Shown here one piece after another: positions 1,559 through 47,963 of a stretch of DNA of 64,000 bases (positions are counted from its first letter, which is position 1; each line of letters starts with the position of its first letter). The stretch covers positions 21,044,449-21,108,448 of the forward strand of contig CM026424.1 in assembly GCA_014871385.1 (NCBI GenBank), read 5' to 3'. The position numbers and the translations under genes were made by a program. The notes beneath the pieces are model-generated. The model made no database searches. It had not been told where the DNA came from and saw nothing but the letters and a program-made list of their open reading frames with translations. This DNA comes from Ceratodon purpureus. Taxonomy: Eukaryota; Streptophyta; Bryopsida; Pseudoditrichales; Ditrichaceae.

Positions 1559-1842
1559 TTAACCCCTAAAGGTTCAAGCCGTTTTCAGACCTCCAAAACC
1601 AAAAACTGTGATTTTTGACAACTTTGCAGAAGTTGGAATATGATTTTGGACTTGAAACCTAAAATTTCTAGATGAAGGTTCTAAAAGTGAAATTTGGCTT
1701 TGAAAATTTTACCACACACACCTTGCGGTATAGGGAACATCCAGTAAAATTTTTAGGCAAAAATATTACTTTTTACCCCTTCATTTAAGCTGCCCAAATC
1801 AGCCGAGAGCCATTTTGGATTTCCAGAACCTTGAGGGGTTAA
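1559..1842 (-). mobile_element. TTAA-flanked non-autonomous element, internally deleted copy
   Basis: A 284-bp element bounded by TTAA. It starts TTAACCCCTAAAGGTTC and ends CCTTGAGGGGTTAA, so the ends are inverted repeats. The left part matches the reverse complement of the right end of the 47964-48901 copy (words around CAAGCCGTTTT and ACCTCCAAAACC). The right part matches the reverse complement of that copy's left end (words around AGGTTCTAAAAGTGAAAT). About 650 bp of the interior is missing. No coding capacity is visible. Confidence 0.75.
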
Positions 1843-2209
1843 AAACCTTCCGTGGCTCAAACGTGAACTTCAGAACACAGCTTCTATTCAAAAATGAAGT
1901 CATGACTTTGAGGAAGGAGATCAAAAATCAAGCAAACTTTGCCTTAGTATGAAGATTGCCATCTCTATCTAGGAGATTTTTGCGAGCCACTGTTGGGCGT
2001 GTAATATTTACTTGATTTATATGTAAACTACATACAGTCTGAATTTGGGAGCAAATCGGTGTTTACAAATTAATAGCTCTCCGTTGTCAAATGGCCCCTG
2101 AACTATAAAGAGATGCTAAAATACAACTACCGGAAATCTAAGACGAAATCAACCTCCACAGAACTAATCTGACAATCAGAGGACTAAAAATTGCTAATAA
2201 ATCTGTCAA

Positions 2210-4795: not shown

Positions 4796-4809
4796 TGGAA
4801 TCCATCGCA
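4796..4809 (+). repeat. Left copy of 14-bp direct repeat, candidate target-site duplication
   Basis: TGGAATCCATCGCA occurs here and again, identical and in the same orientation, at 17636-17649. Both lie immediately outside the inverted-repeat ends of the large transposon. This is what a target-site duplication looks like, although 14 bp is longer than the 8-11 bp usual for Mutator-like elements. Confidence 0.85.
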
Positions 4810-4870
4810 GCGACGCTATCTTGTGAGCGGTGAGCGGTGAGCAGTGAGCGGTGAGCACTAAATTTTCAAA
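4810..4870 (+). repeat. Left terminal inverted repeat of the large transposon
   Basis: Pairs with 17575-17635. It contains five head-to-tail heptamers (GTGAGCG, GTGAGCG, GTGAGCA, GTGAGCG, GTGAGCA). The other end has the same array with one G/A change in the second unit. Such an array is a plausible transposase-binding platform (inference). Confidence 0.92.
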
Positions 4871-5145
4871 TTTTTAGGTAAAAATTTGATTTTTTTTTTT
4901 TTTTTTTTTTGAATTTTTTGGAGAACGATCAAACAATGATGAGCAATTTAGGACACTTCGTTGGAATATATGAATGCAAATAAAGTAGACCCTATAACCG
5001 TGGAATCAATCAAATGTGAATGGTTGGAGGGAAAATCTTACTGTTTAAATCACATACAGAATGTATATCCAATCTTTTTTTTAATTTTTTTTATTGCATT
5101 TTTGTGGACGCTGATATGAGAGAAGAATATTTCCAAGGTATGAAA

Positions 5146-5181
5146 GAATATTCTTCTCTCGGATCCGAGAGAGGAATATTC
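5146..5181. repeat. 36-bp near-perfect palindrome in the left subterminal region
   Basis: The palindrome runs from GAATATTC to GAATATTC and is centred on CTCTCGGATCCGAGAG, with a single mismatched pair. A further arm, GAGAGAAGAATATT at about 5117-5130, is complementary to its left half, so alternative hairpins are possible. The central CTCTCGGATCCGAG core recurs twice inside the same transposon (near 12980 and 13380). Confidence 0.8.
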
Positions 5182-5387
5182 CCTAACATTGGAAGATTTT
5201 TTTTTTTTCTTTCATTTTACCACAAACACATTCGAGAGGTGGACAATATATAAATAAATAGTGACCTTTATTTATGTTCTGCGGATTCCATATCCATCAC
5301 AAAGCCATAACAAATCAATTCCGCTATTCATATAATGTATACTTGAACTGTATTGGTCACTTAATTCCACAGTCTAACCATAAGAAA

Positions 5388-8300
5388 CTACTGAAGCGGT
5401 TCAGCAACTTTGGCCATCTCCAGAACACGCATAACTTCGTTGAAGCTGAAGCTAGGGGCGTGCATAAAAGTATCAACCTTGTAATCCATCTCACATAGAT
5501 AGCGGAAGATATAATAAACATGTTTGCAGTACTTCCACTGTCCTCTTTTGCCAAGGGTTTCCGAAGTCATTTTCATGAAGTCGGGGCAAGTACATCCAGG
5601 GAAGTCCGTAATGGTGATACAATATATCGTTTCACTTGGACTCTTCAAGGAGATGACGCAGCCAAATCCTGGGTATGGAATCGATGTGACATTTGTAATC
5701 CAATAGTTCTTCATGAGACCGGCACTGCTCCACTTGTTGCGGTGGTCGGAGGTAGGAGCGTCAGAACTTCTCCTGATGGCATATTCGTTTCGAGTCGTCG
5801 GGTGTGTATCCGGATCAACAGGAACCGGGAAATGACTCCTTGGAAGCGGCATATTAGCAGAAACCTGGAACTGACGACGAGGTGATAGTACTCCACGTTG
5901 TTGGAGTTGGAAGCCGGCCTCTTCAAGAGCCAAAATCTCTTTGATGGTCAAATTCGTGCCCATTTTCACAGGCCAAGTCTGCGGGATAGATGGCCAATCG
6001 ATCACAAACGACTTCTTTGTGCCCTTCACACATCTACTAATGTTATCGGCGCAAAACCAAAAGTCAGTAGAAATCTGGCGATCGGTTCTGAACTCCTTCT
6101 TCAGCCCTACATAGGTAGGAGCAGGCGTACCATGCGTACCTCGGCGCACTCGGGTATCGCACTTTTCATTTGTATGAGCCTGCATTGCTTGGCATTTTCG
6201 GTTAGACTTGCCGGACAGTCTAGCAATGTGCCACTTAGACGGGTCGCAATCTGTCTCCTGCACTGAAGTAGTGTGTTCAACACCGGAGTCAGGTTGAGAA
6301 AGAGCCTCCTCAATGCGTGCTCTGGTGGATCTCGTGCCATTACGAGGAATGGAATAATTCACTGTATCATAACGATGCGAGTCATGACTCAAACCAGGCG
6401 GCAAATCTAACTTCCGTTTCGTAGATCCAAAGATCTCTGCACCTTCCAAGCCTCCTTTCTTCGTCAGTAAATCCTCGGCTCCCGGGTAGGAATTAACTGC
6501 CTCAGCAATCAACTTCGGATCACCAGAGCGTTGAGCGTGGCGTAAACGAAGTTCTGCTCTGTCCGGACCTTTACCGCCCTTTCCTCCCTTCAGCCAAGAC
6601 CGGTAACTTGTGATCTGCATGAATGCTCGGATCATATCATTCACTGTTGCCTCGTACAAACAGGTCATTGTATTTCCTGATTGTTGAAGCCATCTGTTAT
6701 GCACGGTTTCCGCAAGGTTGCAGGAAGGCATGTCGGCTCTCTCGTCAAGGGTAAGATCCTGGGAAATAGAATAAAATAAATAATGTCATTTTCTGGATTA
6801 AAGATAAAAACCAAGCTATACTAGTTTTTGATGGAAGGTTTAGAGATGAATGAACTTACGAGCTGCATCGACCCTCCCCATTGTCTATATCGATAGTGCC
6901 AGAAAACCATCCAATCATTTAGATGACGCCTTCCTTCTTCAGTCGTAGCACCTGACGAAAGCCACCACCCGCGGATGACATTGTATTGCGCTTCTGCTTC
7001 CTCTTGGGTCTTCGCGTCCTTCCATACTTTGCACAAAGCTTTGGTTGGTCTTGAAAGCTTGGCAAGATATTCCGGGAAGTAGCCCTCTGAAGGCACTTTG
7101 TCCAGTGGAAAAGACAAGTGCGCTCCCGTTCTTCCATAGGTTCATTTGGGTCTCCGTTCCCATACACCTTCCGAACAGCGTGCCAATTGGCTCCAGCATT
7201 GTCAGCCATGAATCCTTTGAAATTTGTATTTGCAAGGCCGTTTTTGCGCATTACTTCATTGAGCTGGAGCCAAAATAACTCCTGAGCAGCAGCATCTTCA
7301 GATTGCATGTCACAAAGAGCAATTGTCATAACTTTACAATACTTACTGTCATAAACGTGGCATGCCATAGTGGTCCAGTCAGCTACACGCCTAACATGGT
7401 CGAACATGATCCAGCAGTCTTGAAGATCACCTCCAGGCTGCATGCGCTTCACCAGATCCACACCGCTTCCTGGACGATCAGTGGACATCTTGAACAGAAA
7501 CACCTTGCCTTCATTCTGTCCAGGGAATTGATTACGGTGGATGAAATCAAAGTTGGAGTAATCCTTCAGCTCCAGGATGCTATCTGTGACTCCTCTCCCT
7601 TGACGGAAAAACCTCTTCGATCCAGAAACAAAATTGCGTATATTCGGTGAAGAAAGAGTCTCAAATTGGTCCATTACAGCATCCATAGATGCTCCGCGAA
7701 GATGACTGCCCCCTGCAGTAGGTCGGATCAGAGCATCGGCAAGATACTGCTTGCTGGCCGCTAAAACGATAGCAGAGTTTTTGGCGTTAGGTGTCCTCTG
7801 AACCTCCTTAGCTATGCAGTCAAACATGATATCCATAGAATCTTGACATCTGCCCTGAGATACAGGATGTCTATGACGTCCTAAATGAATCGCCGCATGG
7901 GTCATATCAATGTCTGAAGACGACACATGATAGATCCTAGCGTCACACAATGCTAGACAACTAGGAGGTGTTTGACATACTTTGCATGCTAAAGTAGATT
8001 TCTCTGTGGGGGAGCCTCCCACAGAGAATGGTACTAAAGCTACGCCTGACCATTCAGTGCTATTTACCATCCCATTATTCCTGCAGATGTAATCACAACT
8101 GATGTTGGGACATTGTAAGTGTCCAGTACAGGATGACTTACGATATGTGAGGCCATACTCGTTCTTGATGTTTGTGGTCATGGTCTTGCACCAAGTGTGG
8201 CCATCATACTGCTTGCTCATCCCGTCCATTCCACCTCCGAATGGATTCGGAACTCCTTCTGGTATAGGGGGCAGCTCGAAAATCTTGTCTCCATCGTAAA

Positions 8301-9006
8301 CTGGCGGTAAGTACTTCACTTGTTCATGATCAATAGTATCGAAATCAATCTTCGATAATTCTGATCGGGAGCCCCTTCTTGATGCTGTCATTCTGATGGA
8401 AAACATAATGCTCCTGTTTTTTTTGGAAGCAGGGTGAATAGGTGGACGCCGTGTAGACAATGACGCAGACATACTAGAACGACTACCCTGTCGAGATGGA
8501 CGACCTGAGTCTTGGGATCCACGACTCTGAAATGGATTTGACCTAGTGTCTCCTAGCTTGATCTCACTGTGAGTGTCATCATCCGAGTCACTCAACAAAT
8601 GTACGGAGTTGTCACTCGGTTCAATTTTGACAGATGCTAGACCAGGAACTTGAACAGTTGACGTGGAGGGAGGAGGGGTCAAAAGAACAGTAGACTCAGA
8701 CATCTGTGCATGTGATAACCCATAAACCTTGAAAGTGCCAGTGGTAAGAGTCCAGACGTAACCATCGGGTGTACTATCCTTCACTTGAAATACACACTCA
8801 AGAATCTCACCATTATCATCAAAGATCTCTTCTTCCACGTAAATAGTCCCAGCTCTAAACCCAAACCTTAGGCTAAGTAATCGCTCCTCCACAACTACGT
8901 TATTGTCTGGACCTACAGACATCACAAAAGGAATACCTCCATCATGAGACCGTAGAGAGGCCATTCTAAGTGTACTATAGAAGATAGGAGAAGTACAATC
9001 ATGCAT
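5388..9006 (-). pseudogene. DDE transposase with SWIM zinc finger, one frameshift
   Basis: Two exons on the minus strand, 9006-6860 and 6758-5388, join through a clean GT-AG intron and would encode about 1170 residues. The N-terminal half has a Cys-rich patch (CTGHLQCPNISC). Next come a first acidic stretch around CWIMFDHVRRVADW and a second with MADNAGANW. Then follow a C..H motif in CLFHW, the W-rich linker RGWWLSSG, and the probable catalytic Glu in SCNLAETVH, just after the intron. The C-terminus has a SWIM-type C-x-C...C-x-H finger (GCTCPDF ... YCKHVYY). The order matches MULE-like transposases. Near 7080-7100 the reading frame must shift by one base, between CLFHWTKCLQ and EYLAKLSRP, and the spliced length is one short of a multiple of three. 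The gene is therefore damaged, or an assembly error exists there. It is divergent from the ParB-methyltransferase gene. A start at 8964 is also possible. Confidence 0.85.
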
Positions 9007-9705
9007 TGGAGGAGAGCTTGTGCAAGTAGAGTGTAAGAAGATGTGCTTGGTGTGTTCCAGGTTGTAGAGATTATATAGTTGTTAGTGGTTAGTGTGGTGG
9101 GACAACTAGCATACTCTAAATTGAAATATAGTGTACTGGCGAATTCACCATGACCTGTATAGCTTAATTTAAGTTCAAATGTGTCAGACAATTTAAAGTG
9201 CTTAGGCGGCTGAGTCCGCCAACCACGTCATGATCAGCTAATACAGTTATATCATTTAGCAGCGAATTTGGAACGTCACAGATGTGCACCAATACATTTA
9301 TAACAATTAGCCGTCAATGTCAGCGTGATCAAGGTAGCGTTAATTTAAATGGTTCTCTTGTTTAGAGGTAGAGTTCCATAAGTTACATTATGTTAAGGAA
9401 AGATATTATACCTGAGCAGACAGTGCTGTTGTCGCATTTCAACATATTATGTTGTCATTCCCTTTACAGATAATAATCTGCCTTTCTAAAATGGTGTGCA
9501 CCTAACTTTATAAATATATACTACTATTATATATAACAAGGACACTGACACAAACTTTAGCAATCACATATTCATCATGCATGTCATACAGTTATGAACT
9601 GTTATGAGACTAAGAGACTACTATATAACTGGAATGAGCTCTTCTCGAATCCAAAGCATTCTTCTTAGTTAGAATTATGTGCAGGGGATAGCGTTACTGA
9701 GACCT
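9007..9705. promoter_or_regulatory. Divergent promoter region between the two transposon genes
   Basis: About 700 bp separate the start codons of the two oppositely directed transposon genes. It is AT-rich, has a TATA-like run (TATAAATATATACTAC) near 9510, and carries no coding sequence. It is inferred to hold both promoters; no specific factor site was identified. Confidence 0.5.
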
Positions 9706-12700
9706 ATGAGGGAAGAGGAAGAGCCAAGCTCCAGAGTGCCGAGGGCTCCTAGATCGTGTACGACTAGAGGTAGAGGGAAAAAGCGAGGTTCAGGTTTCAC
9801 TAATTCGAAGCAGTTGGCGGCCCAGAAGAGATGGAAGGAGAAAGACGCTCTTGACCGTATTGCAGAAGTGGATTATGGGTCAGATGATCCCAAGCATCTC
9901 AAAATCAAAGCATTAGCCACCATATGCCAGGTATACTACATCATGCGGTTTGCTCATATGTGTAATTGTCTAATTGTAAGTAATTTGAAGTATTGCTTCA
10001 TTATGTTATATGGATTAATGTATAATTGTTTTATTTTACTCCGAGGGTCAACAGCATTAAAGGCAGTGCGCATTGCATTTTTATATATTTTTTTTATTTT
10101 GCCGCAAAGGATTTTCATCATAGAGGTAGAGTAGACCCTCACAAAGACAAGACCCCGAGGAAGTACGCATCGCTTTGACAGTAAGTGGATAATGAATGTG
10201 CAATATCTAGGATGACACCAGTTATACAACTCACGGACTTGGGATGATAATGATAGCTATCAGGTACAGAGAGTTGACTGCTTGAAATATTCTTTGGTCG
10301 GTTTGCAGAGCAGCTTGTCGTTAGGAGCTGAAGTTGTCGAAGTGGGCGACGGCTGCGACCCATCACGCACTGCGCGCAACAAGCATCCCAACACGCACAG
10401 CGACCCAACACGCACTTCAGCTGATTCCGTAAGTGCTTCAATCTGTTCTTGACAAGTTCTTCCTTGCGATTTGCGGAGTTCGAAGAAAGAGAGCTGCCTC
10501 GCTTGTTGTAGCCATTTCTTTGAATCTAAAACCCTAGATATGTATGTAGGAGATTCGGGTCGGAGGATTCGAGGAACGAGGCAGTTTTGAACCAAGCGAG
10601 ACGGTAGGAAAAGCTACTGCTCAACTGCCTTCAACGAATATTTCAAGGGGAACCAGCACTGTCGTTCTGGTGAGTTCCTTCGTATACATATTGTTTCCAA
10701 TGTTATAATTTCCAAATAGTGGTTATGTAGGTGCTGTGAGTATGGAGTTGCGAGTGACCTGGCTTGGTTAAAATGGTTTATGCAGGTATCGGAGAGTATC
10801 GTTGAAGTTGAAGGCTGCGCAGACATACCTGCTGCTTATGAATCACTTCATTTCGAGGTATGTACACATTGTGATCCTGATGGGTCTTGCAATTGGATTC
10901 TGTGCTTTCTGAACGTGAGGTGGTTCTCTAAGTATAATTGTCCCGTTGTCTGAGATCCAGGTAAATCAGGTCGTAGAATACACGGGAGAGGAGCCAACTG
11001 TTTTTCGAGAGGTGGAAAGAGACCTGTCGACTTCCAATTCCAATTCTGTGAAGGTAACCAACCCAACACATTGTCCTTGCCAAACTCGTGAATGTCGTCG
11101 TAGACAAGGAGCCCTTCAATTGATCAATTCTGCTAGAATTTATAGGGGACCCGGAGCCGCTCTTATCCCGGTAATGGTTATCCCATCGGTGCTGCGAATG
11201 CCATAATAGACATAGCTCGTGGTGAAGCAAGTCACCTGAGCAGCAGCTGCTCAAGAGACTGGCTGAATTTATTCTACAGCTACATCTAACTTGGATAATG
11301 TTTTTAGCGCCACTTATAAGTCCTGGTAAATGTAGTGGAAGCTGCAATGCATGTGGATAGATTTGGGCTAAACTGATTATATATTTGCCACGCAGATGGA
11401 CTGTGACCAGGGCATGGAAGAGGTGCACAGCCCGTCTACGGCCATGGACTCTACGGATGTGGGTCTGGCTGAGATGGAAGATCAGCTCCGCAAGGTTGTG
11501 CAGGGTACCTCACATTTTGCTATTCAAGATGCAGTGGACCTTCCCGGCATGGAGATTGATGTGCCATTGTGCAGGATGATACCTATGAAGGATGTGAGGG
11601 AGCCATTGAAGACTGACATACAGAAGCTAAAGGCTGAATTCAGCCACGGATACAAGCGAGGTTCATCGAGCTTCTATCTATCACTCAAGAGCTTTAGGAT
11701 GGAAGAGTCAAGTGTCACCGAGGCTGAGAGGTCAAGCTGGTCCGCATTATGGCAGAAGGAGGACCTGGAGTTTGAAGCCCGATTGCTGTCAAATCCAGAC
11801 TTGAAGAAATACTCCAATCGCTACTTCTATGTATGGGACGGGAATCATCGTCACATTGCTTGGTCAGAATTGATCAATTCTCTCCACAAGCATGATGCTT
11901 CTTTCCATGTTTCAGCCCGTTCAATCATCATCAACGTCACGCCTGCAAATTGCAATATGTTGTTGCATGCCATGACAGATTGGAACAAGTAAGTAATTCA
12001 TTCAATTTAAAATCATTACAATTAAAGTATATGATTTTTTAGAACATAATCCTTTGATTTATTTTACATATGCTTCATTTTTTAATTGTATGGATTGACT
12101 GTTCACTGTTCACAGAAAAAATGAAGTGGACCATGTTGTTCAGCATTGGACCCATGAGGTGAAGAGGGTCCAACAGCTAGGTCTTTTGGACTTTGACTAG
12201 CTAAAGGGTCTGGTCAAAGATGAGGATTTGCAAGCAAGCATTATAGAGTGGGGGCGTATCAAGAACAGAAAGTGGTATCATCTATTACATGATTCATTTA
12301 TAGACTTCTTATACGAGGTGAGAATGTTTAATGGATTTAAGTTGTCAAATATTTATCAGTAATTACTTTAACTATTGCCAAAGCCAATACACTAACAGGT
12401 AATGTATGTATTTAGAGAGAAATATGAGCCGCCCAAGAGGAAGCTATTCGGATCTATAGAGACTCATTAGTCACAGGTCGCGGGGAGGACAAGGTGGGAA
12501 GTCCCTCTGAGCTCCTTGCCGTTGCCAAGAAGGCCGTAGCGGTGACGAAAACATCCCTCTCCACTAAATTGGACCGATACTTGGCCATTGCCAACCCAGC
12601 TAATGGCGAAGGTTTCTTAAAAGAGGTATGTATATTTCCATAAATCATCCATAAATCTGTAAAAATTTTGTAAATGGTTGTTACCACTGAAGTTCAAAGC

Positions 12701-12717
12701 CATTTTGCTCTCTTATT

Positions 12718-13032
12718 TTCGTCGTTCATGAGGACTTTGTTGTTTTCGTTTGGTTATGCTTGATCAGCCTGCTGCTGCTTGCCTGCTCGCGGTGTCTAAG
12801 TCTGATATGTTTTGAGCATGGCTCCGGGAAATACTGGTTTTAATGGGGGATGCTGGTGGCTTTGTGCAAGCACGTGACTCCGGTTTCAATTTTTTTTTGG
12901 TACCTTGCCTCCAGTGGAGGCTCGGTTTTTGAGTGGTTTTTCGAAAAAAGCGTCTTCAGGCGGCACCCCCGGACCACCTCTCGGATCCGAGGGGTGCCTG
13001 GACGCACCCAGGGTACTTCACTTTTTTTCATG
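12718..13032 (+). repeat. First copy of a ~310-bp intronic direct repeat
   Basis: This segment lies in the intron between exons 8 and 9 of the ParB-methyltransferase gene and is repeated almost exactly at 13131-13433. It includes GGCACCCC ... GGGGTGCC, an inverted repeat enclosing the palindrome CTCGGATCCGAG. The two copies differ at only a few positions, so the duplication is recent relative to the decay of the gene. Confidence 0.88.
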
Positions 13033-13130
13033 TAGTGCCTCCCATTCTGAGCCTGGGGTACGACTTGCTTTTAGATTTTAATTTTTTTTTGCTCACGAGT
13101 CGAGGCTCTGTAGTAACTGAGCTAGTTCTT

Positions 13131-13433
13131 TTCGTCGTTCTTGGATTTCGTTTTTGTTATGCTTGATCAGCCTGCTGCTGCTTGCCTGCTCGCGGTGTCT
13201 AAGTCTGATATGTTTTGAGCATGGCTCCGGGAAATACCGGTTTGAATGGGGGATGCTGGTGGCTTTGTGCGAGCACGTGACTCCGGTTTCAATTTTTTTT
13301 TGGTACCTTGCCTCCAGTGGAGGCTCGGTTTTTGAGTGGTTTTTCGAAAAAAGCGTCTTCAGGCGGCACCCCCGGACCACCTCTCGGATCCGAGGGGTGC
13401 CTGGACGCACCTAGGGTACTTCACTTTTTTTCG
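13131..13433 (+). repeat. Second copy of the intronic direct repeat
   Basis: Near-identical to 12718-13032, with a spacing of about 410 bp. It carries the same GGCACCCC/GGGGTGCC hairpin and CTCGGATCCGAG core. No coding function is evident. Confidence 0.88.
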
Positions 13434-16400
13434 TGAAGAGTGCATTCGTGATCGAGCTTGGGTCATGATGCTTTTCTTTCTTTCTGAGTTCTATTAGCTT
13501 GTTGTAGCCTCATGCTGTGTAGTCTGAGTGCTGCTGCGTGCAACTAGCAACAGCTTGGGTGCCTTGCTGATTATTTGTTATGTCTTGTGTGATGCTGCGT
13601 GCTGGCAGTACCTTGCCTTGGGCTTGGTATTTGTTTCGGCTTAAAATGTGTTCAGTGTTGCCTGCTTAATGCAAGCAATAATTCTCAATCATTGTTTACC
13701 GAGTGCTGCAAGTAGGTTGTTTGGGTTCTGTATTGTATATTACTTTGATAAACATGATTAAGTCTGGTAATATTTAGTTTGTTATGTTCACTTGAAAGCA
13801 ACTATATGTTATAGATATTATATGTTGTAGAAGTCTTTTATTCTCAGATGATTGTATTATTTTATGCAGATCATCCGCCATTTTGATGTTTATCAGAGCG
13901 ACTCAGAGATGATCCCAGAGAAGTTGCAACTTTTTGCAAGCGCCAAGGTTGCTCCCAAGTACAAAGAGCGATGGCTAAAATGGTGGAACATGAGCAAGGA
14001 GAGTCGGGTGGAGTACAACTTCCCTCCGACACCAGCTTCTGATTTAGTTCTTCGAGTTTGGATTGATCAAGCAGCTTTCTGGGCCGGGGTAAGCACAATC
14101 CTGCTTTCTCTCATAATTTGAATTGATCTATGTCTTCTAATGTTGCAATTGAAATTCAAACCACATTCTTTCTAATGTGATGCATTCTAATATTTTTGGT
14201 TTGTTTCTTATCCCGCAGTTAGAAGAAGAGGCAGCCCTTCGTTATGCCAAGATTGTAGAGGAGGATATCATAGTTTTGAGGACAGATTTACCTAATATTG
14301 TAGATGATATTGGCTCATGGATTGAGGCTCATTCTCTTACTCTTTGGGGAAAGGCCTTCACTGGTTTCTTCCCCAAGGCTGGCACTTTCACCAAGAAAGA
14401 ACCATTTCTTAACCAAGCTGGAGCTGAGAATGCTATGAAGAGGGTTATATTGAGGTACTTCTGGAGGGAGTTGGTAGTTAAGGGTGCCATTGATAGGAAT
14501 GATATTCCACAGCGTTTTAAGAAATGGGTGGATGTTTCTAGCTCTGAGTGCATTTTTACAGATTATCAGAGGAGGCATTTTCGAGCTCCACATCTTGTTC
14601 AATGTCCCTGGTACCTTGAATTGAAGGAGAGTGAGAAGTGTCCTGGTGATGAGAGAGCTTTGAAGGCTAGCTGTGACAACTTGGTGCTGCAGCTTGGGGA
14701 TGAGAATACCATGAATTTGGAGGAGACTGCCTCGGAGATTGGTGATGATGCTTCTCTTTCTGAGAAGCAAAGGAAGAAACTAGCAGAGAGGAAGGCAAAG
14801 GCTGAGGCAAGGATGAAGGAGAAGGAGGACAAGAAGAAGGAGAAGGAGGAAGGACTCAAGCTCAAGAGAGAATTGGCAGCAAGGAACAGGGAGCTGGCCA
14901 AGCTTGTTTTGAAGGAAGGGCCAGAGAAAATGTTGACTCATGTTGGCATTTCTCCTTCAGGTAGCAGCATGGCTGCTGCCATAGTTCCTGTAGCTCCTCA
15001 GGTGCCTCTTTTTTCTACCCTCATGCCTTCTCAGACTATCTACACCATTCCATGCTCGCAGTTGGATGACTTAGACACTAGGGTTGAGATCATCAATGAC
15101 TCCCCTATGGGCATTTTGGAGCTGTTTAATGATCTATCAGAGGGGGATGAGCCTGAGGTTTGGATCAAGGTGAAGGATCGGATCAAGGAGAATCTCGGTA
15201 GCAAGGCTAGGAATTTTGGAGGTGAAGAGGCTGAGGCTGCTGTAGACCTTATCATTTTTGATGTTCCAGAGGATTTACCAGTTCCAGGTTTAGGGCAGGA
15301 TGGTGAGATTCCATTCTGGAACAAGCACCCCAAGATTTCAGCAGGGAAGAAAATGGAGTCTTCATGGATTAAGGCCCATTTTGAGTTTGCTATGCAGTTT
15401 CTGCAGGATGATGGAGCCTTGATTGTATTCTACCCTGATTCAAGGTTCATTTCGAATGAGCTTATTTCCTGGGCAGAGTGGGCTAACTTTCAGGAGGAGG
15501 CCAAGTGGTTTGCAATCAATGGCCTGCCATTGACTATTCCAGACCGTTATCCACGGGAGCACAAGACTTTTATGGTCAAGTGCTTCATCAAGATGGAGAA
15601 TGCGGAGGAGGGTGTTCCAAGGTCTAAGTTCCAGTTTCATGATAGGGCTGAGCTTGGTGCCCAAGGCATCAAGCTCTCCACTGATGGTCACTGTACTAAT
15701 TTGATAACTGCAGATTCTCTGACTTATAATTCAGAGACAGGTTTGCCATTCAGAGGTCCTAGAGAGAAGACTTCTAACCTCTTGCAGGCTCTGATTGATC
15801 TCTGCACTGTAGAGAATGACATTGTCATGGATCTCACAGCTTCTACAGGTATTTTTTAGTCTTTCTGTTTTCTGATTGTTGTTTTTTGTATTTCTTTTTA
15901 TTCTTTAATCTCATGCAATTGAGCTTCGATTTTTTTGCAGGTGCTTCTATTCGAGCATCGAAGAGTCTCCGGCGCCATGTCATAGGCTTTGAGTATGACA
16001 CCACCTTGTACAAGCAGGTGTTGTTGCCTCTTCTTCCAAGCGCAGAAGAGGTTGAGTCTGCTCCAATTCCTGTGGCATCACCAAAGAAGAAACGTGCCAT
16101 TGAATCAGATGATGAGCCTGAGAGGAAGACTGCCCCCAGGCGTTCTTGTAAGTAAGTCTCTACATTCATTTGACATTTGTTTATTTGTTTAAAAAAATTT
16201 AGTTCAATATTTATTAAACTGTGAAATTGTCATGTGCAGTCGGAAGAAAGCGTTGAAGAATGACATTGGTGGCTCTATTATCTCCCGCCATCTTAGCAAG
16301 ATTAAGAGTCCAGTTAGACCTTTAGAGCTTCCCCATTATGCAGAGATGCAGGCTCAAGCTTATTTAGCTGCTCCTTCTCCATCTATTTCATCTGATAGAG

Positions 16401-16531
16401 ATAGCATTTGTCGTGATGCTGAGATTTATCTTGACATAGCTGCAGAAGTTGCCAGAGTGGTATTATCTAGTGATAGCGATTCTTATGATGGTTGGATTGG
16501 TACTTGTAGCGATGACGAGATGTCTACTTGA

Positions 16532-17574
16532 TCATTGCATATTTACTCTATATTGTTATGTTTTCCCTACTTATATATTATATGATAGCTTTGGCTTTGG
16601 ATTTTATATTTTGCCTTAACCTCACTTTACTCTACTTTTCTATGAATTTCTCTACCGGCCATATATTTTAAATTGACTTCATACATGATTGAATTATAAA
16701 GATGGTACTAATTTATGAAGAAGTTTAACATTCCTTGGTTAAAACTTGAAGGCATCAGAATATAATGTGGTTTTCTTTAAACCTTTTTCATGTATTTTTC
16801 CTTGCCCTATTATGCAAATACCCCTAGTAATTACTTGGGGTACTTGGGCACCCCTAGTAATTACTTGGATTCCCCTACGAACGCAAATCCGGGATCCCAA
16901 GTCGGTTTTAGGAGTAATTAACTCTCAGTTAATTAATTCTGCAGCTTTAATTCAGTCATCCAGCACTTGGATGAAGAATTAGTCATCCCAAAAAACAATA
17001 AGCCACATTCATCTACAATAGCCGTTGTGTATATCCGTTCTTCACCTAACTTTGTTTTTTTTTTTTTTTTATCTTCCTTCTTTCTCTCCTATATGTATTC
17101 ATTCATTTTTTATTTTATTTTTCTTTTTTAGTTAATTCGTTTTTATGTTTTATCTTTTATTTTTTTTCATTTATTTTTTTATTTATTCGTTGTTTGTTAT
17201 CCCACGTTGTTTTATTTATATTTCTTTCTTTTCTTCTTATTTTCCTTATTTTTTTTAATTTTTTTCCCCTATATTCCTTTTCATTATTATTTTTTATTCT
17301 ATTTTCTTTCTTTCATTTATTTACATTTTTCTCTTTTCTTTTTTTTTCCTTTTTTTAATTTTTTCCCTCTTGGTCGTCATGGCGTGGGATTGATAGGAGA
17401 TATGAAAAAAAAATCACAATTTATTCGGGTATGAATCGGGTGTAAATTTCTACATTTATCAATTTAAAAGCCACTCTTTTTAGAATATACCCTAAAAGAC
17501 TTTCCACGGTCATAGGTCCCATATATGCCATGGCATGCAAAATCATATCAAAATATCAAATAAATAGTCGAAAT
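16532..17574. other. Right subterminal region of the large transposon, low-complexity
   Basis: There is no gene here. A short tandem duplication of CCCTAGTAATTACTTGG lies near 16822-16868. From about 17056 to 17370 the plus strand is almost pure pyrimidine and T-rich, mirroring the T-rich tract just inside the left end near 4890. Confidence 0.65.
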
Positions 17575-17635
17575 TTTGAAAATTTAGTGCTCACCGCTCA
17601 CTGCTCACTGCTCACCGCTCACAAGATAGCATTTC
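17575..17635 (-). repeat. Right terminal inverted repeat of the large transposon
   Basis: Reverse complement of the left end 4810-4870, with five GTGAGCR heptamers. One heptamer base differs, plus the four bases next to the terminal G. Confidence 0.92.
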
Positions 17636-17649
17636 TGGAATCCATCGCA
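17636..17649 (+). repeat. Right copy of 14-bp direct repeat, candidate target-site duplication
   Basis: Identical to 4796-4809 and directly adjacent to the transposon end. Confidence 0.85.
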
Positions 17650-24290: not shown

Positions 24291-26573
24291 TGTTCACATC
24301 TTTCCCCCTTTCTTTTTTCGCTCCTCAACAAGGGTTTTAGAGTGTGGGAACTGAGCACCGTCATCCGCTTCTAACGTACCATATCTTGATCACTTGCCGC
24401 TTTGTTTACTCGCTTTGCCTGTTCAACTGATGACACCTCCGTTTGCCTTATGGTACTGTCACGAACGGTTCACTGTGAACTCAGAACCTTGGAGACACGG
24501 GGCTGTGAAGGGGAATATCGATGATGTGTCCATGTCAGCTGAGAACACTGGTTGGCTGGGAAGGTTTCATGGACTAAAACCTGAGATCGTTGGGATCTCT
24601 GGAATGCCAACCGTGTCTCTTGGCCCATGTCTCTTCCCCATCCCCTCTACACCCTTTACTTGGTTTCTGCCGGGGTTCGAATGGCCTGGATTTCCCCCTC
24701 GTATTATGAATTGTTGAGTTCACTTGCATTACCTAAGCCAAGCTTGAACTTTCTTTAGTGGGATATAAATTATGCATTACAAACACCTGCAATTTTTTGA
24801 TGGTATCCTGCATCAGTATGAGATCTCGCAAGTACTTTAGAGGACTACTTGATGCAGGGAAATTTTTGAATCTGCCAAACCCTCGCACTTGAAGAGTGTG
24901 TTCAATTCTTGATCGTTGCGTATTGAAACTTCGGTACATATCAGTGTAAGCCTAATTCCAGACATTTCCCTTGTGCTTCTACCTTGGGCTGTTGTGTTAC
25001 TCCATCATAAACGACTGCCTTAGATATTGACTGACCTTTGTGGCGGAGAACTTGGAAGGGTAGCGGCCTTTTTTATTATTTTGTATAGAGCACGCATACA
25101 TCTTAGACGAGATGTGATCAAGTGACGCGACGGTAAGCTTCGAGATTAAGCACTTTATCGACTAACATTTGATTTTGACCAGTCTAGTGCTACTGATGCA
25201 TAATTCATTTACAATATCAATCTCGAAGCTGGAGAGAAGAGTTCATGTTTTATGAAGGTCAGGAATTTTTATGCGCTGTTTCTAGCAGATTCTCTGATGA
25301 ATGGAACTCTGGGTACTCGGGTAGAGGTGAAGTAATATTCCACTTTCTACATGATCTCTGCAGTGAGCGTAGAAAAAGAGCTGATCATCAAACTTTTTAA
25401 GGACATCTAATGTTATCCATCAATCTGGACCTGGATACTAAATGTCCTTATTTTTGGATTTTGCACAAACCGTCACATGGGAGCGTGTAAGCCTGTCGGT
25501 GATGATCCACACCGCAGCAGTAATTGCGAGTTGTGTTTAGTCTCAACATTCTATGACTTAAAGTTATGCTACTGGTCATGCGGAAAACCAGGGAAAGACA
25601 TTCTGATCTGCATCTTCCGGGTTGATCATTATCATGCGTTGTAGCCACATCAGAATTATCGATGTGCTCTCTTTATGTAATTCTGCGTTCTAAACATAAT
25701 TTTTTTCTTGCAGTATCGCTGAACTTGCCTAGAGTTCGGTTCCCTTGGATATTGAAGAAACCGTGTACAGTCATGATGATGCTTTGTGCTCTTCGTGGCA
25801 GAAAGACTTTGAGGGGACTGAACCAAACGGCGTGGTAGCTGCTGGTGAAGAGGAGCATATGGAATGGACAAACGTCCACAAACAGGACTTGAGAAATATT
25901 TTGCTCGTGCCTGAAATACTGAAAATACCATTAGTGTAATTTCTCTATGGAAAGGTCCCGCGAGTTTTTTTCGGCAGTTCTGAACTGATCATAACTCTAA
26001 ATTATAGAAGCAATCATGTTCAGGTAAGATAGTTTTCCGAGGTGAGGATTCATTTGCGTTCTTATGTTGAGACTTCTAGTGATGTAGCGCATCGTGGTTG
26101 ATTATTCATTCTTCCACTTTAGTCTCTCAAGCGAATTGAAATGCAACGTGTGACTAAACCTTTCACGGTTCTATTATTAAACAGAGGATTAGGTGCTTGT
26201 AAATTTGGATATCCTGGGGAAGTAAAGTGTTTCTAGGCCCTGAGTTGCCCAAAGCCGACCTGGATAAATTGTCGGCGGTGAATTGAATCACGCCCTTAAT
26301 GGACTGGAGAAACAAGAACTCGGGCACATGTTGAAGGACGCCATCTGATTGTTAAAGGTGTAGCTTTCACAAAGTACGATGAATGATTACAAGCTGTAAG
26401 GCCCACGTACTAGTCAAGATCCGGACGACTGAGAGCGGCCAGCATGTCGGGAACTATGGCGTGATAAATGAATATATCATTTGACTATTGTGGATCTACA
26501 TGGCATTTGTGGACCCTAATGGGCCGCAGCGGAGGTTGAATACCAAGTTTGTGAGATCTCATACAAGAGAAGG
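24291..26573. other. Intergenic, then 5' region of the Cys-rich gene
   Basis: Short open frames on both strands have no recognisable content. The last few hundred bases presumably contain the promoter and leader of the plus-strand Cys/Pro-rich gene. Confidence 0.45.
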
Positions 26574-29204
26574 ATGTGGAAACCATCTCAAGATGTGAAA
26601 GGTGGGGGTGGAGCAGACGAAAGCAAATTTTATGATAGACCAAGTCAGAGGCGGAGGTGGGATTCCTTGGCCGATCCAAAGCTACTACCTTCCGATTTGG
26701 AGTATTCGCCGCCAAGGTCATCACGTTGGGATGCCAGCACCCAGGTCCCTTCCGAGCGTAGGCTACAACAACGCCCTAAAATTTGTCTGGAATATAAGAG
26801 CTCTTCGTCAAGACCCTTACAGTGGGATGTTAGCACTCAAGTACCATCCGAGCCCAAGTCGCGTCCTTCACATATCGTGGAACATCATTCAAGTCCTTCA
26901 CGGCCAGCACGAATAGCAGGTGGCAACGGGTGTAATTGTTGCCCGTGCCCTCCAACTCCTTGTGAGCGACCGGTGGAATCTTGTTTACCTGGTTTGCACC
27001 AGAAATATGTGGATGTCTACGACACAAAAGGCCATGCTCCAGAAGGCCATCTTCCTGCCGGGTACCGAAGGTTTGTTGAGCATGATGACCTCTATCTGCC
27101 TCCGTCGCGGGCCCTCAGTCCAGCTTCAACAGACCATGATGACTTATATCTGCCTCTCAAGACGAACGAGTACTCGCCTCGAGACTGTTGTCCTTGCGAC
27201 TTGCGCATGTGTGATTCTGACCCAACCTATGGGGATATTTATTTGCCACCCTCAAGACCTTGCACCCCTGCCTTCCCCAAAGATCCGTGTGGATACCAGC
27301 CTCCTTGCCCGCCTCCCTGTTGCCCTCCGCCTCCGTGCAGACCCTGCCCTCCGCCTCCCTGCAGCCCTCCTCCCCGACAATCATCATGCGGACCCAAAAT
27401 AGTGTGCTCCTGCCCACCGTACATCAAGAAACTGGCTCCCTGCCCTGCACCACCTTCCAACGACTGCAGCTGCTCTCCTTATATCAAGAAATTATCTGGT
27501 TGCTCTCCTCCTCCATCTCGTCCTCCCTCGCCTCCTCCTGCACCTAGCTGTCGCCCAGGCTGCTGTCGTCCAGTTCAGCAGTGTAGTTCAGTCTACATAG
27601 ATGAGGTCCCTTCCCCTCCTCCAGGCACTCGTTATGTAGCATGTCAAGAATGTTTATGTCACAAGGATATTAGCACGCGTAGCCTTTGTCCTTCCCCGAA
27701 AAAAATTAGTCCTTGCCGAGACTGCGTTTGTCATTTAGGTGCGAGGAGTCCGTCACAGGGGGGTAGATGTCCACCTAAGGGTGCCCATACACGATGCCAG
27801 GCAGGGTTTCAGACGCCTGGCAAGCCTCGTCTTAAGATCAACTTAAACCAAAGTGCCCAGTGCTTGGAGTGTAAATCGCCTTATAACTGCAAGGGGCCAC
27901 CCAATTGCAATCCCCAGTACATTCTGGAGACGCCATTGTCACCCAATTCAGCAAGGTCCAGATCTCCTTCACCCGGACTAAGACCCAGGTCTCCTATGGG
28001 CGCAGGCAAGTGTTCAGCAGGACCGCCCCCGAGCTCAAGATGTCAAAGCTGCGATTGTCATAAAGGCGGGAGCAGCTCTAACAAATGTGGTGGGCCACCA
28101 AAGGTTAGCCCAAAGCTTTTAGAAGATCCGTGTTGCTCTCCGTGCAGACCATCTCCATGTCGACCCCTACTAGCTGCAGAGATGCTGAGTGGAATGGAAG
28201 CATGTGTGAGTCAAGCAAAAGCCTGCGGTGCAAACCCTGCTTCGTGCATGGATACACGTTGTGGAAGCTGCGACTGTCACAAGCCGAAATGCCCACCACC
28301 TCCTTCTCCACCGTGTTCGCCTTGCAGCAAACCATCACCTCCTCCTTGTAGAGCGCCGCCCCCTTCTTGTTCACCTTGTAGGTCTCCTGGGCCATCTTGT
28401 TTTGACGATGATGTTCATAACCCCACCTTCAAGAGTTTCCAGTCAACAAGCCCAAGATGTAAAGATTGTGATTGTCACAAGCCAAAGAACTGCAAGCTCT
28501 CCTCGCAAATCTGCAAGTTCTGTCGGGGGGCAGGCTGGTGCTACTGCGAATATCATACGACACTGCAGCTCTTAACGGACAGTAATTCTGAGCCTCAAAC
28601 CTCGCCGCATCATGATAAGAACTCCATGGAGGTGGAGGAAACAGTGGTTTCTCAAGTTTCGGGTATATCACCTGAGAACACGTACCGGAGCTCTGACTTG
28701 TCGGCCAGGAGTGCAAAATTGGAGTACAATGAGTCCCCACGTGATGAAGAAATTGAGCAAATATCAAGGTCCCCGATGAAAGATATACCATCCCAATCTG
28801 ATATAATACAGCTTTGCTGCTGTGGGGAGTGCGAATATACCAAGCCTCGGTTTCCTATGAAAACCGAATGCCCGTTTTGCAAGCACACACATTCGTGCTG
28901 CTGTGGAATGTGCAGTTGCCCGATCCCAACTTGTTCCAGCAAGACACCTCTCGACGGCCCTCTATCACGCGGCGTGTCAGTGAATAGCAGTGGAGCCTTA
29001 ACGGGGCGGAGCAATCCTCCACTTTACAGTTACAGGCCGAAATCGGTGTCCCAACAGCTTGCACCGAGAAAGAAGCTGGGGTTCACCTCGCCAGACAAAT
29101 CTACTCCCAAGACATTTACTACATCTAACTCGCAACTCTCAAATGCAAGATTGTGCTACTCCAGTCCTAAAACGCGGATGAAACAATCACCTACACGAAG
29201 GTAG
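26574..29204 (+). CDS. Cys/Pro-rich repetitive protein, 876 aa, family unknown
   Basis: A single uninterrupted frame from ATG at 26574 to TAG. I do not recognise a named family. Visible repeats: RWD.STQVPSE-like units near residues 50-90; DDLYLPPSR-like units at about 165-220; a pair of CSC.PYIKKL units at about 275-310; a Pro/Cys block of PPCCPPPPCRPCPPPP type at about 240-265; and five copies of C-x2-C-x-C-H (CQECLCHK, CRDCVCHL, CQSCDCHK, CGSCDCHK, CKDCDCHK) between about 355 and 635. After CKFCRGAGWCYCEYH comes a Ser/Glu-rich spacer, then a final cluster (CCCGEC ... CPFCKH ... CCCGMC) at about 745-790 and a basic tail. There is no N-terminal signal peptide. The regular Cys/His spacing suggests metal binding or redox cross-linking (inference). 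It could alternatively be structural, like Pro/Cys-rich wall or sperm proteins, though secretion is not supported. The lack of introns is unusual beside its neighbours. Confidence 0.75.
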   Translation: MWKPSQDVKGGGGADESKFYDRPSQRRRWDSLADPKLLPSDLEYSPPRSSRWDASTQVPSERRLQQRPKICLEYKSSSSRPLQWDVSTQVPSEPKSRPSHIVEHHSSPSRPARIAGGNGCNCCPCPPTPCERPVESCLPGLHQKYVDVYDTKGHAPEGHLPAGYRRFVEHDDLYLPPSRALSPASTDHDDLYLPLKTNEYSPRDCCPCDLRMCDSDPTYGDIYLPPSRPCTPAFPKDPCGYQPPCPPPCCPPPPCRPCPPPPCSPPPRQSSCGPKIVCSCPPYIKKLAPCPAPPSNDCSCSPYIKKLSGCSPPPSRPPSPPPAPSCRPGCCRPVQQCSSVYIDEVPSPPPGTRYVACQECLCHKDISTRSLCPSPKKISPCRDCVCHLGARSPSQGGRCPPKGAHTRCQAGFQTPGKPRLKINLNQSAQCLECKSPYNCKGPPNCNPQYILETPLSPNSARSRSPSPGLRPRSPMGAGKCSAGPPPSSRCQSCDCHKGGSSSNKCGGPPKVSPKLLEDPCCSPCRPSPCRPLLAAEMLSGMEACVSQAKACGANPASCMDTRCGSCDCHKPKCPPPPSPPCSPCSKPSPPPCRAPPPSCSPCRSPGPSCFDDDVHNPTFKSFQSTSPRCKDCDCHKPKNCKLSSQICKFCRGAGWCYCEYHTTLQLLTDSNSEPQTSPHHDKNSMEVEETVVSQVSGISPENTYRSSDLSARSAKLEYNESPRDEEIEQISRSPMKDIPSQSDIIQLCCCGECEYTKPRFPMKTECPFCKHTHSCCCGMCSCPIPTCSSKTPLDGPLSRGVSVNSSGALTGRSNPPLYSYRPKSVSQQLAPRKKLGFTSPDKSTPKTFTTSNSQLSNARLCYSSPKTRMKQSPTRR

Positions 29205-34894: not shown

Positions 34895-35574
34895 ATGGAC
34901 ATTGAGAAAGGGTGTCTACTGGCATGGATGTCCGTCGTTCTCTTTAATGGAACGCGAAGGACAGATGGGCGAAGAAGCGTTGGCTCCCAAATGTCCCTCA
35001 CCTTGCCAACCTTGTTCGAATTTCTAACGCGTTTCCATTCACAGAGAAATGCTACCAGGAGGTGGTGTATCTCGGACAAATAGCCGGATACACATATGAC
35101 GAATTTCTGCGGCAGTTGGACGTACCAGGGGAGACTCGAGGTTTTTGCGCAGCAAATCCGATCAACCTTGATGAACCTTCCGATGGCTCTTCCGATGACA
35201 CCTCCGACCTTTCTGCAACGAACTACAGTAGCTCGGACATTGGGTCTGATCGCCGAAGCCTTGATGTCGGACTATCTATGTCCGATGCATCCGATGGGGT
35301 GACCACCGACGTTCAGGGAGGCGCGGAGAGTGGAAGCGTTGAGGATGGAGGACAAAGCGGAGACTACTGCGTCTGTGATGTGGCGGAGAGCGTGGAGTAC
35401 TGTTCGTGCGAGTTAAACTTATTCCCAGCATGTTCAGAGGAAGTTGTGAGGAACGCACTGTTCAGTGTTTGCAAAATTTTTTTTTGGAAATATTTTGTTT
35501 TTCTGCGGCATGATGGAAGCATCTTCTTTTTTGGTTTTTCACGTACTGTTACCTTCATAGTGGTGCTGCAGTGA
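34895..35574 (+). pseudogene. Upstream tandem paralogue of the acidic MDxEKG protein, frameshifted
   Basis: The segment starts with MDIEKGCLLAWMSVVLFNG and, after a one-base frame change near 34955-34970, continues as WLPNVPHLANLV and then YLGQIAGYTYDEFL and CAANPINLDE. Each part aligns with the intact gene 900 bp downstream (MDSEKGALLAWMGLVF; WLPDLPHLGRLL; FTFAEYLAHY; SAANPIVVDE). A long Ser/Asp/Gly-rich acidic region follows, then a hydrophobic, aromatic-rich C-terminus that the other copy lacks. The family is not recognised. The frame change could be an intron-free indel, making this a pseudogene, or a sequence error. Confidence 0.6.
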
Positions 35575-36438
35575 CGTGATTGATATTGTTCTGAGGATGC
35601 CGTATGAGAGTGGAGGAATTTCAGAGCTTTACGTTCATTACTATGTTAGAAAAATTACTGTAGCTCAAACATTGAATTTCTATTCCAATTCCGAGACGTT
35701 CAGCACACAGTCACATTTTTGGTACATAGAGAGTGACCACATACAAGAACAGAGGAAACGCTTTATCCGGCTTTATACACTAACAGAGCAGTCGATGTTG
35801 TTTAAATTTTTTTGTTGTTGGTTGTAGAATTTTGATGCATACTCTGTGAACACATAGCTGTGAAGGTGTGGTTTGGTCTTCACAGTCCTGTTGTAGAACT
35901 GCCTTGCAGGGAAAGCGTAATGATGTAGTTTTCCAGATAACCCTTTGTGAGAATGTAATGGATTACTAAAACGTATCCAATGTGTTGATTACTGCCTTGT
36001 TTATGTCATAGTCGATGAGTATGTGTCGTCAAATATTCTGTGGAGGTTGTCGACACAATGATGGGATGTTAGCTTACCTATTATCTGTGTTGTCTTCTTT
36101 GATTATTGTACCACGCCAAGCTAGGATTTCCCCTGGCTTTGAGTTTGACGTCTTGTTTGTTGCCGATCATTGTATGTAGTTAACCGGAATATGGGGATTG
36201 GACATCTTGGGGTGATCAAGGGCGGCTTCTGATGGTTCTGGGAGATGCAGGACGACAAAGACATCAATGCTGACCTAATTTTTTTTGTGCTACTTCGCAT
36301 AGAATGTGGGAGTCAGGTGTATTAGTAGCCAACTAATAGAGAAATCCAGTGGGGTTGGGAGTTATGTGTTTTGTGGAGTTAGATTTTGGGAGTTTGCTGT
36401 TGCTGTGGGGTTTTCAGTAAGGTAGCTTGTACGTAGAA

Positions 36439-47095: not shown

Positions 47096-47963
47096 CAAAC
47101 ACTTAATTCAGGTTGGTCTCCTTCGGAAACCGAAGTTTCTTTTTGTGCGCTAATGTTGATAATAGGCCGCTATGACATTTCTTTTTACAAAAATATTATA
47201 AATCATGTATTGTTTAAGTTTCATGTTTCACCTCTCTTCAAAATGGGGTTAAAAAATAAAAAAGTACTTCAAAAAATTTCATCAACTTATCACATATGCA
47301 GTTCTCCAAACTGTTAGTTACAAAACTAAAAATAAAAAACCAAATAAACAAATAAAATGTGGATTTTACCACATGACCTTCAATTTAAACGGTTATATTA
47401 ACACTTAATGAAGGTTTTGTCTAACAATTTATGAAAGATGTCGGTTCTTAGAAACATTTTGTCATATTGGGGTATAAAGTGACACATCTTTATTTGACTC
47501 CCTTTCTAGGCCTAGGCTTCCAATTAGTATTATGATTAAAATAAAGCAAATGTGGTAGGGATTTGAAGCTCGAAACTATAAAATTAATAAGATATTTTGT
47601 AGAGAGAAAAATACAAACCTCATTGGATTTTCATCCATGGCAAAAGAACTAGAACTAAAAGAGAGAGAACACTAGTCAAAACCACTTGGGGGTAATTCCA
47701 CCTTGCGGGATGAGATTCCACTTCGCAGTGAGATGTGTTGTGTGACCCATAATGTTTCTAATTAGCCACTTAGAGTCAAAGGACTTAAGTGTATTGTGGA
47801 TCAGTGCTTCTACAGACACACAAGAATTCCACTACAACGTGATCATATGGAAGGTACTATGTGATTATATGGAGTTTGTTAAAAATTCATGTGAAAATTC
47901 CTAGTAAAAATTGCACTAATTATCGGTCTCAACAAATTCAAGTTCTGCCATATCTTTACACAT
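47096..47963. other. Intergenic, AT-rich
   Basis: No gene or clear repeat boundary seen. Confidence 0.45.

What the first reader, a model, noticed from the sequence alone, without database searches (positions are those of the whole stretch)
4810..17635. A 12.8-kb plant transposon pairing a SWIM/DDE transposase with a ParB-methyltransferase gene
Seen directly: matching 61-bp ends, a perfect 14-bp flanking direct repeat, and two divergent spliced genes with recognisable transposase, ParB-like and methyltransferase-like segments. Known: class II elements with SWIM transposases (Mutator-like, Zisupton/KDZ) exist, and DNA methyltransferases with ParB-like domains are common in phages and prokaryotic mobile DNA. 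Inference: the element carries its own DNA-marking module, which could protect, silence or mark its copies. I know of no described plant element with exactly this layout, but could not search.
Basis: partly seen in the sequence, partly recalled or inferred. Interest (0 to 1): 0.9.

Follow-up and report, generated by a model that had tools for sequence, protein, structure and literature searches.

The report
Plant jumping gene with methylase-like partner
This is a real, now broken, 12.8-kb plant jumping gene that carries, beside the enzyme that moves it, a second gene whose protein is built like a bacterial DNA-marking enzyme but has an altered active site; similar pairings were known from algae but not, as far as I could find, from land plants.

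Summary
A 12.8-kb element (4810-17635) has 61-bp inverted ends (58 of 61 identical), each with five GTGAGC heptamers, and a perfect 14-bp flanking repeat. It carries two divergent spliced genes. The minus-strand gene is a DDE transposase with a SWIM-type finger (54 hits in a capped search). The plus-strand gene encodes a ParB-like motif and a DNA-methyltransferase fold (profile comparison E 8e-12). This copy is dead: two nonsense codons in the plus gene, one frameshift in the transposase. 'DNA-marking module' is only partly supported. In all seven sequences reaching it, the catalytic motif reads D[VI]PE, where 11 of 12 phage enzymes have Tyr last. The base-stacking aromatic is missing, as in inactive METTL14, so methylation is doubtful. 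ParB rests on a motif only. ParB-methyltransferase genes opposite a transposase are already described in a brown-algal Sola1 transposon (PMC12477816). New here: a land-plant element, an unclassified SWIM/DDE transposase, a 14-bp duplication and the altered motif. The host genome could not be searched, so constant pairing of the two genes is untested.

The parts
4796..4809 (.). left copy of the 14-bp target-site duplication TGGAATCCATCGCA
4810..4875 (+). left terminal inverted repeat: 5 poorly matched outer bases, then 61 bp matching the right end (58 of 61), with five tandem GTGAGC heptamers at 4823-4856
6759..8964 (-). transposase exon 1 (coding 8964-6860) and its intron (6859-6759); first two acidic residues of the inferred DDE triad at about 7401 (FDH) and 7203 (MAD); one frameshift near 7.05 kb
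   Evidence: frameshift judged against P0003 and L001
5388..6758 (-). transposase exon 2: NLAE glutamate (about 6710), SWIM-type CxC...CxH at 5603-5505, stop at 5388
   Evidence: SWIM above Pfam cut-off in relative P0054
9706..9930 (+). probable first exon of the accessory gene (basic N-terminus); join to the next exon inferred from splice sites and phase only
11396..11988 (+). accessory gene exon with ParB-like motif VWDGNHRHIAW (11831-11863)
   Evidence: fern relative P0002 shares the region
12116..12625 (+). accessory gene exons 12116-12317 (in-frame stop at 12198) and 12416-12625 (in-frame stop at 12425)
13870..14088 (+). accessory gene exon
14219..15848 (+). accessory gene exon: conserved linker, then methyltransferase domain from about 15233, with motif IV D-V-P-E (within 15257-15280) and start of motif I DLTASTG (from 15830)
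15941..16531 (+). accessory gene exons 15941-16151 (end of methyltransferase domain) and 16240-16531 (C-terminal tail, stop)
17570..17635 (-). right terminal inverted repeat (matched part 17570-17630, five heptamers at 17589-17622, 5 poorly matched outer bases)
17636..17649 (.). right copy of the 14-bp target-site duplication

Best explanation
A large cut-and-paste DNA transposon of a land plant, inactivated in this copy. Its DDE/SWIM transposase cuts at the 61-bp ends and inserts with a 14-bp target duplication. The divergent second gene makes an accessory protein of about 1,100-1,200 residues, with a ParB-like motif region and a methyltransferase fold of the CcrM/DpnA type. Shown: the ends, the flanking duplication, both genes, the methyltransferase fold, and conservation of the altered motif in seven related sequences. 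Inferred: the protein binds its own element, most simply at the tandem GTGAGC heptamers in both ends. It then either protects the element from host silencing or helps assemble or license the transposition complex. Because the base-stacking aromatic of motif IV is glutamate in all seven sequences seen, the methyltransferase half more likely acts as a binding or scaffold module, or at most as an atypical enzyme, than as an ordinary N4-cytosine or N6-adenine methylase.
For: Ends, heptamers and flanking duplication. Transposase family: 54 hits; both inferred catalytic Asp invariant in 18 aligned rows, the window plus 17 of the 54 hits; NLAE glutamate in 4 of 4 rows. SWIM in P0054, E 6.8e-5, above cut-off. 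Against L001, codon positions 1+2 differ at 0.21-0.24 and position 3 at 0.57-0.62, so the transposase evolved under purifying selection. Methyltransferase fold: hhalign Prob 97.5, E 8e-12, score 82.7, against at most 20.6 in 20 column shuffles. Motif IV D[VI]PE in 7 of 7 rows reaching it, against Tyr at the fourth place in 11 of 12 phage enzymes. The core GTGAGC occurs 5+5 times in the ends and once elsewhere in the element, both strands counted. Precedents: Ectocarpus Sola1 with an opposite-strand ParB-methyltransferase gene; VANC proteins of Arabidopsis VANDAL elements bind tandem short motifs and remove silencing marks; METTL14 with EPPL lacks the stacking aromatic and is inactive by its authors' tests.
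Against: No binding, expression or methylation data. ParB assignment is motif-level: hhalign against seven phage partition ParBs scored 18.5, and 3 of 50 shuffles did as well or better. The methyltransferase signal is weak by single-library searches: Pfam below its cut-off (3 of 8 rows match at E up to 1), PHROGs E 0.23, and a profile of A3 found no methyltransferase in PDB sequences up to E 10. The motif keeps the Asp and the second Pro, and DLPY occurs in two of the twelve phage enzymes, so activity is not excluded. Linkage of the two genes was seen in this one copy only. Binding to the heptamers is untested.
Confidence: 0.5

Rival explanations
1. The accessory protein is an active N4-cytosine or N6-adenine DNA methylase that marks the element's own copies, the first reader's idea and the one proposed for the algal proteins.
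For: Whole-domain methyltransferase fold. Asp and second Pro of motif IV kept in 7 of 7 rows, Asp of motif I in 7 of 7 and its last Gly in 6 of 7. Strong conservation of the region. Ectocarpus authors predict 4mC or 6mA activity for their protein.
Against: The aromatic of motif IV is Glu in 7 of 7 rows, against Tyr in 11 of 12 phage enzymes; motif I is DLTASTG-like instead of DPFxGSG-like. Pfam match below cut-off (E 0.0018).
Confidence: 0.28
2. The plus gene is a passenger captured by the transposon (Pack-MULE-like) without a role in its life cycle.
For: Giant algal transposons often carry additional genes of unknown function (PMC12477816). Pairing was seen in one copy only.
Against: The gene has its own family: 8 distinct relatives in two capped searches (P0001, P0002, P0057-P0062), with frames of 326-839 residues, not scattered host-gene fragments. 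The same domain pair is reported in algal transposons.
Confidence: 0.12
3. Two nested, independent elements: the plus gene belongs to a separate insertion inside the transposase element.
For: One weak inverted pair does lie on either side of the plus gene (9680-9709 and 17510-17539, 30 nt, 70%).
Against: That pair is no better than other internal chance pairs (20-30 nt, 70-91%), and no strong inverted repeats bound the gene. The genes are divergent around a spacer of about 0.74 kb, as in a two-gene element.
Confidence: 0.04

Closest known systems
Sola1-1_Ec32 of the brown alga Ectocarpus (PMC12477816; section 5 read), with cited green-algal (Iyer 2011) and red-algal (Petroll 2025) cases, which I have not read
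   Same: Giant DNA transposon; gene on the strand opposite the transposase; protein of about 1,100 aa with ParB-like and N4/N6 methyltransferase domains
   Different: Sola-1 transposase and 21.5 kb there; here an unclassified SWIM/DDE transposase, 12.8 kb, 14-bp target duplication, land plant. Whether the algal proteins are homologous to this one, or keep an aromatic motif IV, is unknown to me; their sequences were not held
Mutator-like elements (MULEs), including VANDAL (PMC6446971 and PMC5735166: passages; PMC10398659: abstract)
   Same: C-terminal SWIM finger in many clades; antisense accessory genes in some; VANDAL carries a sequence-specific anti-silencing protein that binds tandem short motifs
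   Different: Target duplication 8-11 bp in MULEs, 14 bp here; no Pfam transposase match; accessory protein without shared domain hits
KDZ (Kyakuja-Dileera-Zisupton) elements (name in PMC12477816 passages; features partly recalled)
   Same: Large, with long transposases and accessory genes
DNMT-carrying retrotransposons of dinoflagellates and charophytes (PMC5890265, abstract read)
   Same: A mobile element carrying a DNA methyltransferase
   Different: Retrotransposons with C5-cytosine enzymes, shown to methylate; another enzyme class
METTL14, pseudo-methyltransferase (PMC5023411, passages read)
   Same: Methyltransferase fold whose motif IV lacks the stacking aromatic (EPPL)
   Different: RNA m6A complex; also lost the Asp, which is kept here
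Phage proteins fusing a ParB-CTPase fold to N6_N4 methyltransferase (PMC12704722, passages read)
   Same: Same pair of domain types in one protein
   Different: Prokaryotic; the passages seen name no plant or transposon case, and no sequence match was found here

Membership tests
DNA transposon (DDE, cut-and-paste) | terminal inverted repeats with target-site duplication | tested here: met
   58 of 61 identical ends, perfect 14-bp direct repeat
DNA transposon (DDE, cut-and-paste) | DDE catalytic triad | tested here: met
   two Asp invariant in 18 aligned rows, NLAE Glu in 4 of 4; assignment by motif order, no structure available
Mutator-like elements | target duplication of 8-11 bp (PMC6446971) | tested here: not met
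   14 bp in the single copy available
Mutator-like elements | SWIM zinc finger in the transposase (many clades) | tested here: met
   Pfam SWIM above cut-off in one relative, P0054; the window's own copy shows only the CxC...CxH pattern
Mutator-like elements | sequence match to MULE transposase profiles | tested here: not met
   no Pfam transposase family for window exons, P0003, P0007, P0054, P0055 or L001 exon 2
KDZ | KDZ transposase domain and 8-bp duplication (recalled) | not tested
   no KDZ sequence was held; the 14-bp duplication speaks against it
ParB-methyltransferase accessory protein of algal transposons | ParB-like plus N4/N6 methyltransferase domain in one protein encoded opposite the transposase | tested here: inconclusive
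   layout and methyltransferase fold met; ParB only by motif; homology to the algal proteins not testable, sequences not held
active CcrM/DpnA-type (beta-class, recalled name) DNA methyltransferase | motif IV ending in an aromatic, usually [DNS]PP[YFW] (recalled) | tested here: not met
   D[VI]PE in 7 of 7 rows; of 12 phage enzymes 8 read [DS]PPY, 2 DLPY, 1 DILY, 1 did not align there
active CcrM/DpnA-type (beta-class, recalled name) DNA methyltransferase | fold with motif order IV...I | tested here: met
   hhalign E 8e-12 over 203 columns
ParB fold | profile match to ParB proteins | tested here: inconclusive
   no support: score 18.5 against 7 phage partition ParBs, 3 of 50 shuffles as high; no Pfam, PHROGs, NCBIfam or PADLOC hit. 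The query profile had only two rows and the ParBs were of the partition type, so power was low; only the WDGNHR motif speaks for it

The most novel reading that the evidence does not exclude
A previously undescribed superfamily of land-plant giant transposons, with SWIM/DDE transposase and 14-bp target duplication. It has turned a prokaryote-type ParB-methylase into a conserved non-methylating factor that recognises heptamer arrays in the element's ends and shields or licenses its own copies, a pseudo-enzyme counterpart of VANC anti-silencing. The same module would then have been used by unrelated transposases in brown, red and green algae and land plants.
Probability: 0.2. Interest if true: 0.78.

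Novelty: new variant of a known kind. Interest (0 to 1): 0.55.

Why it matters
It extends the ParB-methyltransferase transposon accessory, known from algae, to a land plant and to a different transposase; if the proteins prove homologous, the module has been attached to several unrelated transposase classes. It also raises a sharp, testable point that the 'transposons methylate themselves' idea has to face: here the methylase-like domain is conserved while its catalytic signature is altered in all seven sequences that reach it. Either the chemistry is unusual or the domain has become a DNA-binding tool. A bryophyte or fern with intact copies would allow a direct test of 4mC/6mA on the element and of binding to its end repeats.

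Tried and rejected
Nested insertion: no convincing internal element ends around the plus gene. LTR-like or TRIM reading of the 287-nt pair at 12749-13438: it reads as a plain tandem duplication (unit 403 bp) inside an intron. Viral origin: three protein scans of viral contigs returned no relative; ten contigs sharing a 20-mer of the end repeat gave no tblastn hit in the stretches held. Phage origin of the methyltransferase half: no phage match at E 0.1 for P0001. ParB homology to plasmid and phage proteins: no plasmid match at E 10, seven phage matches at E 3-9, no profile support. PADLOC gave methyltransferase hits for P0001 at E 0.002-0.016. My first thought that losing the first Pro of motif IV was decisive was dropped, because DLPY occurs in two of twelve phage enzymes. 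Profile searches of PDB sequences with A2 and A3 gave only unrelated matches; the A3 result is against the methyltransferase reading, and most of its rows stop before the last part of that domain. Rfam and tRNA searches found nothing.
Full report
WHAT IS THERE. The element spans 4810-17635. Its two ends match as inverted repeats over 61 bp (4815-4875 and 17570-17630), 58 of 61 identical. The outer five bases of each end match poorly (GCGAC, GAAAT; 2 of 5). Both ends contain five tandem copies of a heptamer, GTGAGC plus G or A. The six-base core occurs five times at each end and once elsewhere in the element. The ends are flanked by a perfect 14-bp direct repeat, exactly 5 bp outside the matched part on both sides. 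In 200,000 random pairs of positions only one had an equal-offset repeat that long.

THE TRANSPOSASE. The minus-strand gene has two exons, 8964-6860 and 6758-5388. A protein search, which scored only the 7,999 candidates sharing most words, returned 54 relatives at 30-80% identity; nine carry a source's name, each 'hypothetical protein', and none names a host. In an alignment of the window's first exon with 17 of those 54, two Asp residues (in MFDHV and GFMAD) and a C..HW motif are invariant. The NLAE glutamate in exon 2 is kept in 4 of 4 sequences. One relative, P0054, has a Pfam SWIM finger above the curated cut-off; the window's own copy has the CxC...CxH pattern but no Pfam hit. L001, a 4.1-kb contig filed under a cyanobacterial MAG but with an intron at the same place, carries open frames of the same gene at 64 and 70% identity. 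I take it as eukaryotic contamination of that bin. Against L001, codon positions 1 and 2 differ at 0.24 and 0.21 (exons 1 and 2) and position 3 at 0.62 and 0.57, dS saturated: long purifying selection. The window's copy has one frameshift near 7.05 kb.

THE ACCESSORY GENE. The plus-strand gene runs from a probable first exon at 9706 through seven further exons to a stop at 16531, with GT-AG introns and agreeing phases. It holds in-frame stops at 12198 and 12425. Without the probable first exon the read-through is 1,118 residues. Two capped searches found P0001 and P0002 and, with an alignment of the methyltransferase exon, P0057-P0062: 8 distinct relatives. P0002 is from the fern Adiantum nelumboides and aligns over the ParB-like third (26% over 289 positions). 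It ends 'VIDVLLVDV', where our protein reads 'AVDLIIFDVPE', so its record may be cut just before motif IV (inference from a weak global alignment). The hosts of the other relatives are unknown to me.

METHYLTRANSFERASE HALF. Pfam N6_N4_Mtase matches at E 0.0018, below its cut-off, and 3 of 8 rows match it at E up to 1. PDB sequence matches are DpnA E 0.004 and CcrM E 0.012; a profile of A3, most of whose rows stop before the end of the domain, found no methyltransferase there. A profile of seven sequences against twelve phage enzymes gave Prob 97.5, E 8e-12 and score 82.7 over 203 columns, covering motif IV through motif I. Twenty column-shuffled versions reached at most 20.6. I take the fold as sound. 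The catalytic motif is not ordinary. Seven of the eight A3 rows reach it (P0062 stops short); six read DVPE and one DIPE. Of the twelve phage enzymes eleven have Tyr at the fourth place: eight with PP at places two and three, two with LP, one with IL; the N15 row did not align there. So the Asp and second Pro are kept and the base-stacking aromatic is Glu in all seven. Motif I reads D[LI]T[AT][ST]T[GC] instead of DPFxGSG. In METTL14 the corresponding EPPL lacks the aromatic needed to stack the acceptor base, and its authors found the protein inactive (PMC5023411, passages). By analogy I think loss of ordinary activity more likely than not, but the retained Asp leaves room for an atypical enzyme.

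PARB HALF. The motif VWDGNHRHIAW and its flanks resemble ParB's (recalled pattern). No library gave a hit. Profile comparison with seven phage partition ParBs scored 18.5, and 3 of 50 shuffles did as well or better. I keep 'ParB-like' as a lead, helped by the reported recurrence of this domain pair in algal transposons.

ONE ELEMENT OR TWO. No strong internal pair of ends bounds the plus gene; one weak pair (30 nt, 70%) lies on either side of it. The genes are divergent around a spacer of about 0.74 kb.

HOST. A plant-type aquaporin exon at 52319-52798 (Pfam MIP; PDB matches include PIP2-4) and the fern relative point to a land plant. The species is not known to me.

COMPARISON. The Ectocarpus transposon paper (PMC12477816, section 5 read) describes a 21.5-kb Sola1 element with an opposite-strand gene for a 1,104-aa ParB-like plus methyltransferase protein. 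[quoted passage not shown] The kind is therefore known. Phage ParB fusions to N6_N4 methyltransferases are common (PMC12704722, passages). MULEs have 8-11 bp target duplications (PMC6446971, passages); 14 bp here and the lack of any transposase profile hit argue against simple membership. VANDAL elements carry VANC proteins that bind tandem short motifs and remove silencing marks (PMC5735166 passages, PMC10398659 abstract), which is the best functional model I have for an accessory protein beside heptamer arrays. I saw no land-plant ParB-methyltransferase transposon in the listings. Only one search listed all its papers (5 of 5); the others listed 20 of 683, 20 of 89, 20 of 667, 10 of 2,631 and 15 of 2,945, and the listing was filled by papers holding several plant names and no ParB term, so this absence is weak. 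That library lacks most subscription journals; Iyer 2011 and Petroll 2025 were not read, and Iyer 2014 was not held.

VERDICT.

Noticed in passing
window 12749-13438: A 98% identical 287-nt direct duplication (unit 403 bp) inside the intron between the fourth and fifth accessory-gene exons; each copy has a GGATCC-centred palindrome.
   Followed up: partly
window 1559-1843, 47962-48903, 55248-56174: Three copies of a repeat family about 0.9 kb long (the first a fragment in inverted orientation), 76-94% alike in the matched blocks; a separate element.
   Followed up: no
window 52319-52798: An exon of a plant-type aquaporin, minus strand (Pfam MIP, E 6e-16).
   Followed up: partly
window 26520-29204: An 894-aa open frame rich in Cys and Pro with repeated CxxCxCHK-like units; no Pfam match at E 0.01.
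   Followed up: no
window 34948-35574 and 36421-37161: Two neighbouring open frames with similar N-terminal parts (PNVPHLANL / PDLPHLGRL ... AANPI) and no Pfam match at E 0.01; possibly a tandem gene pair.
   Followed up: no
window 46046-46181: A 68-bp tandem duplication, 93% identical.
   Followed up: no
L001 1-4101: A contig filed under a Synechococcales MAG encodes an intron-containing relative of this transposase, most likely eukaryotic contamination of the bin.
   Followed up: partly
window 4810-4814 and 17631-17635: The five bases between the target duplication and the matched ends differ (GCGAC, GAAAT); either degenerate outer ends or carried-over flanking bases.
   Followed up: no
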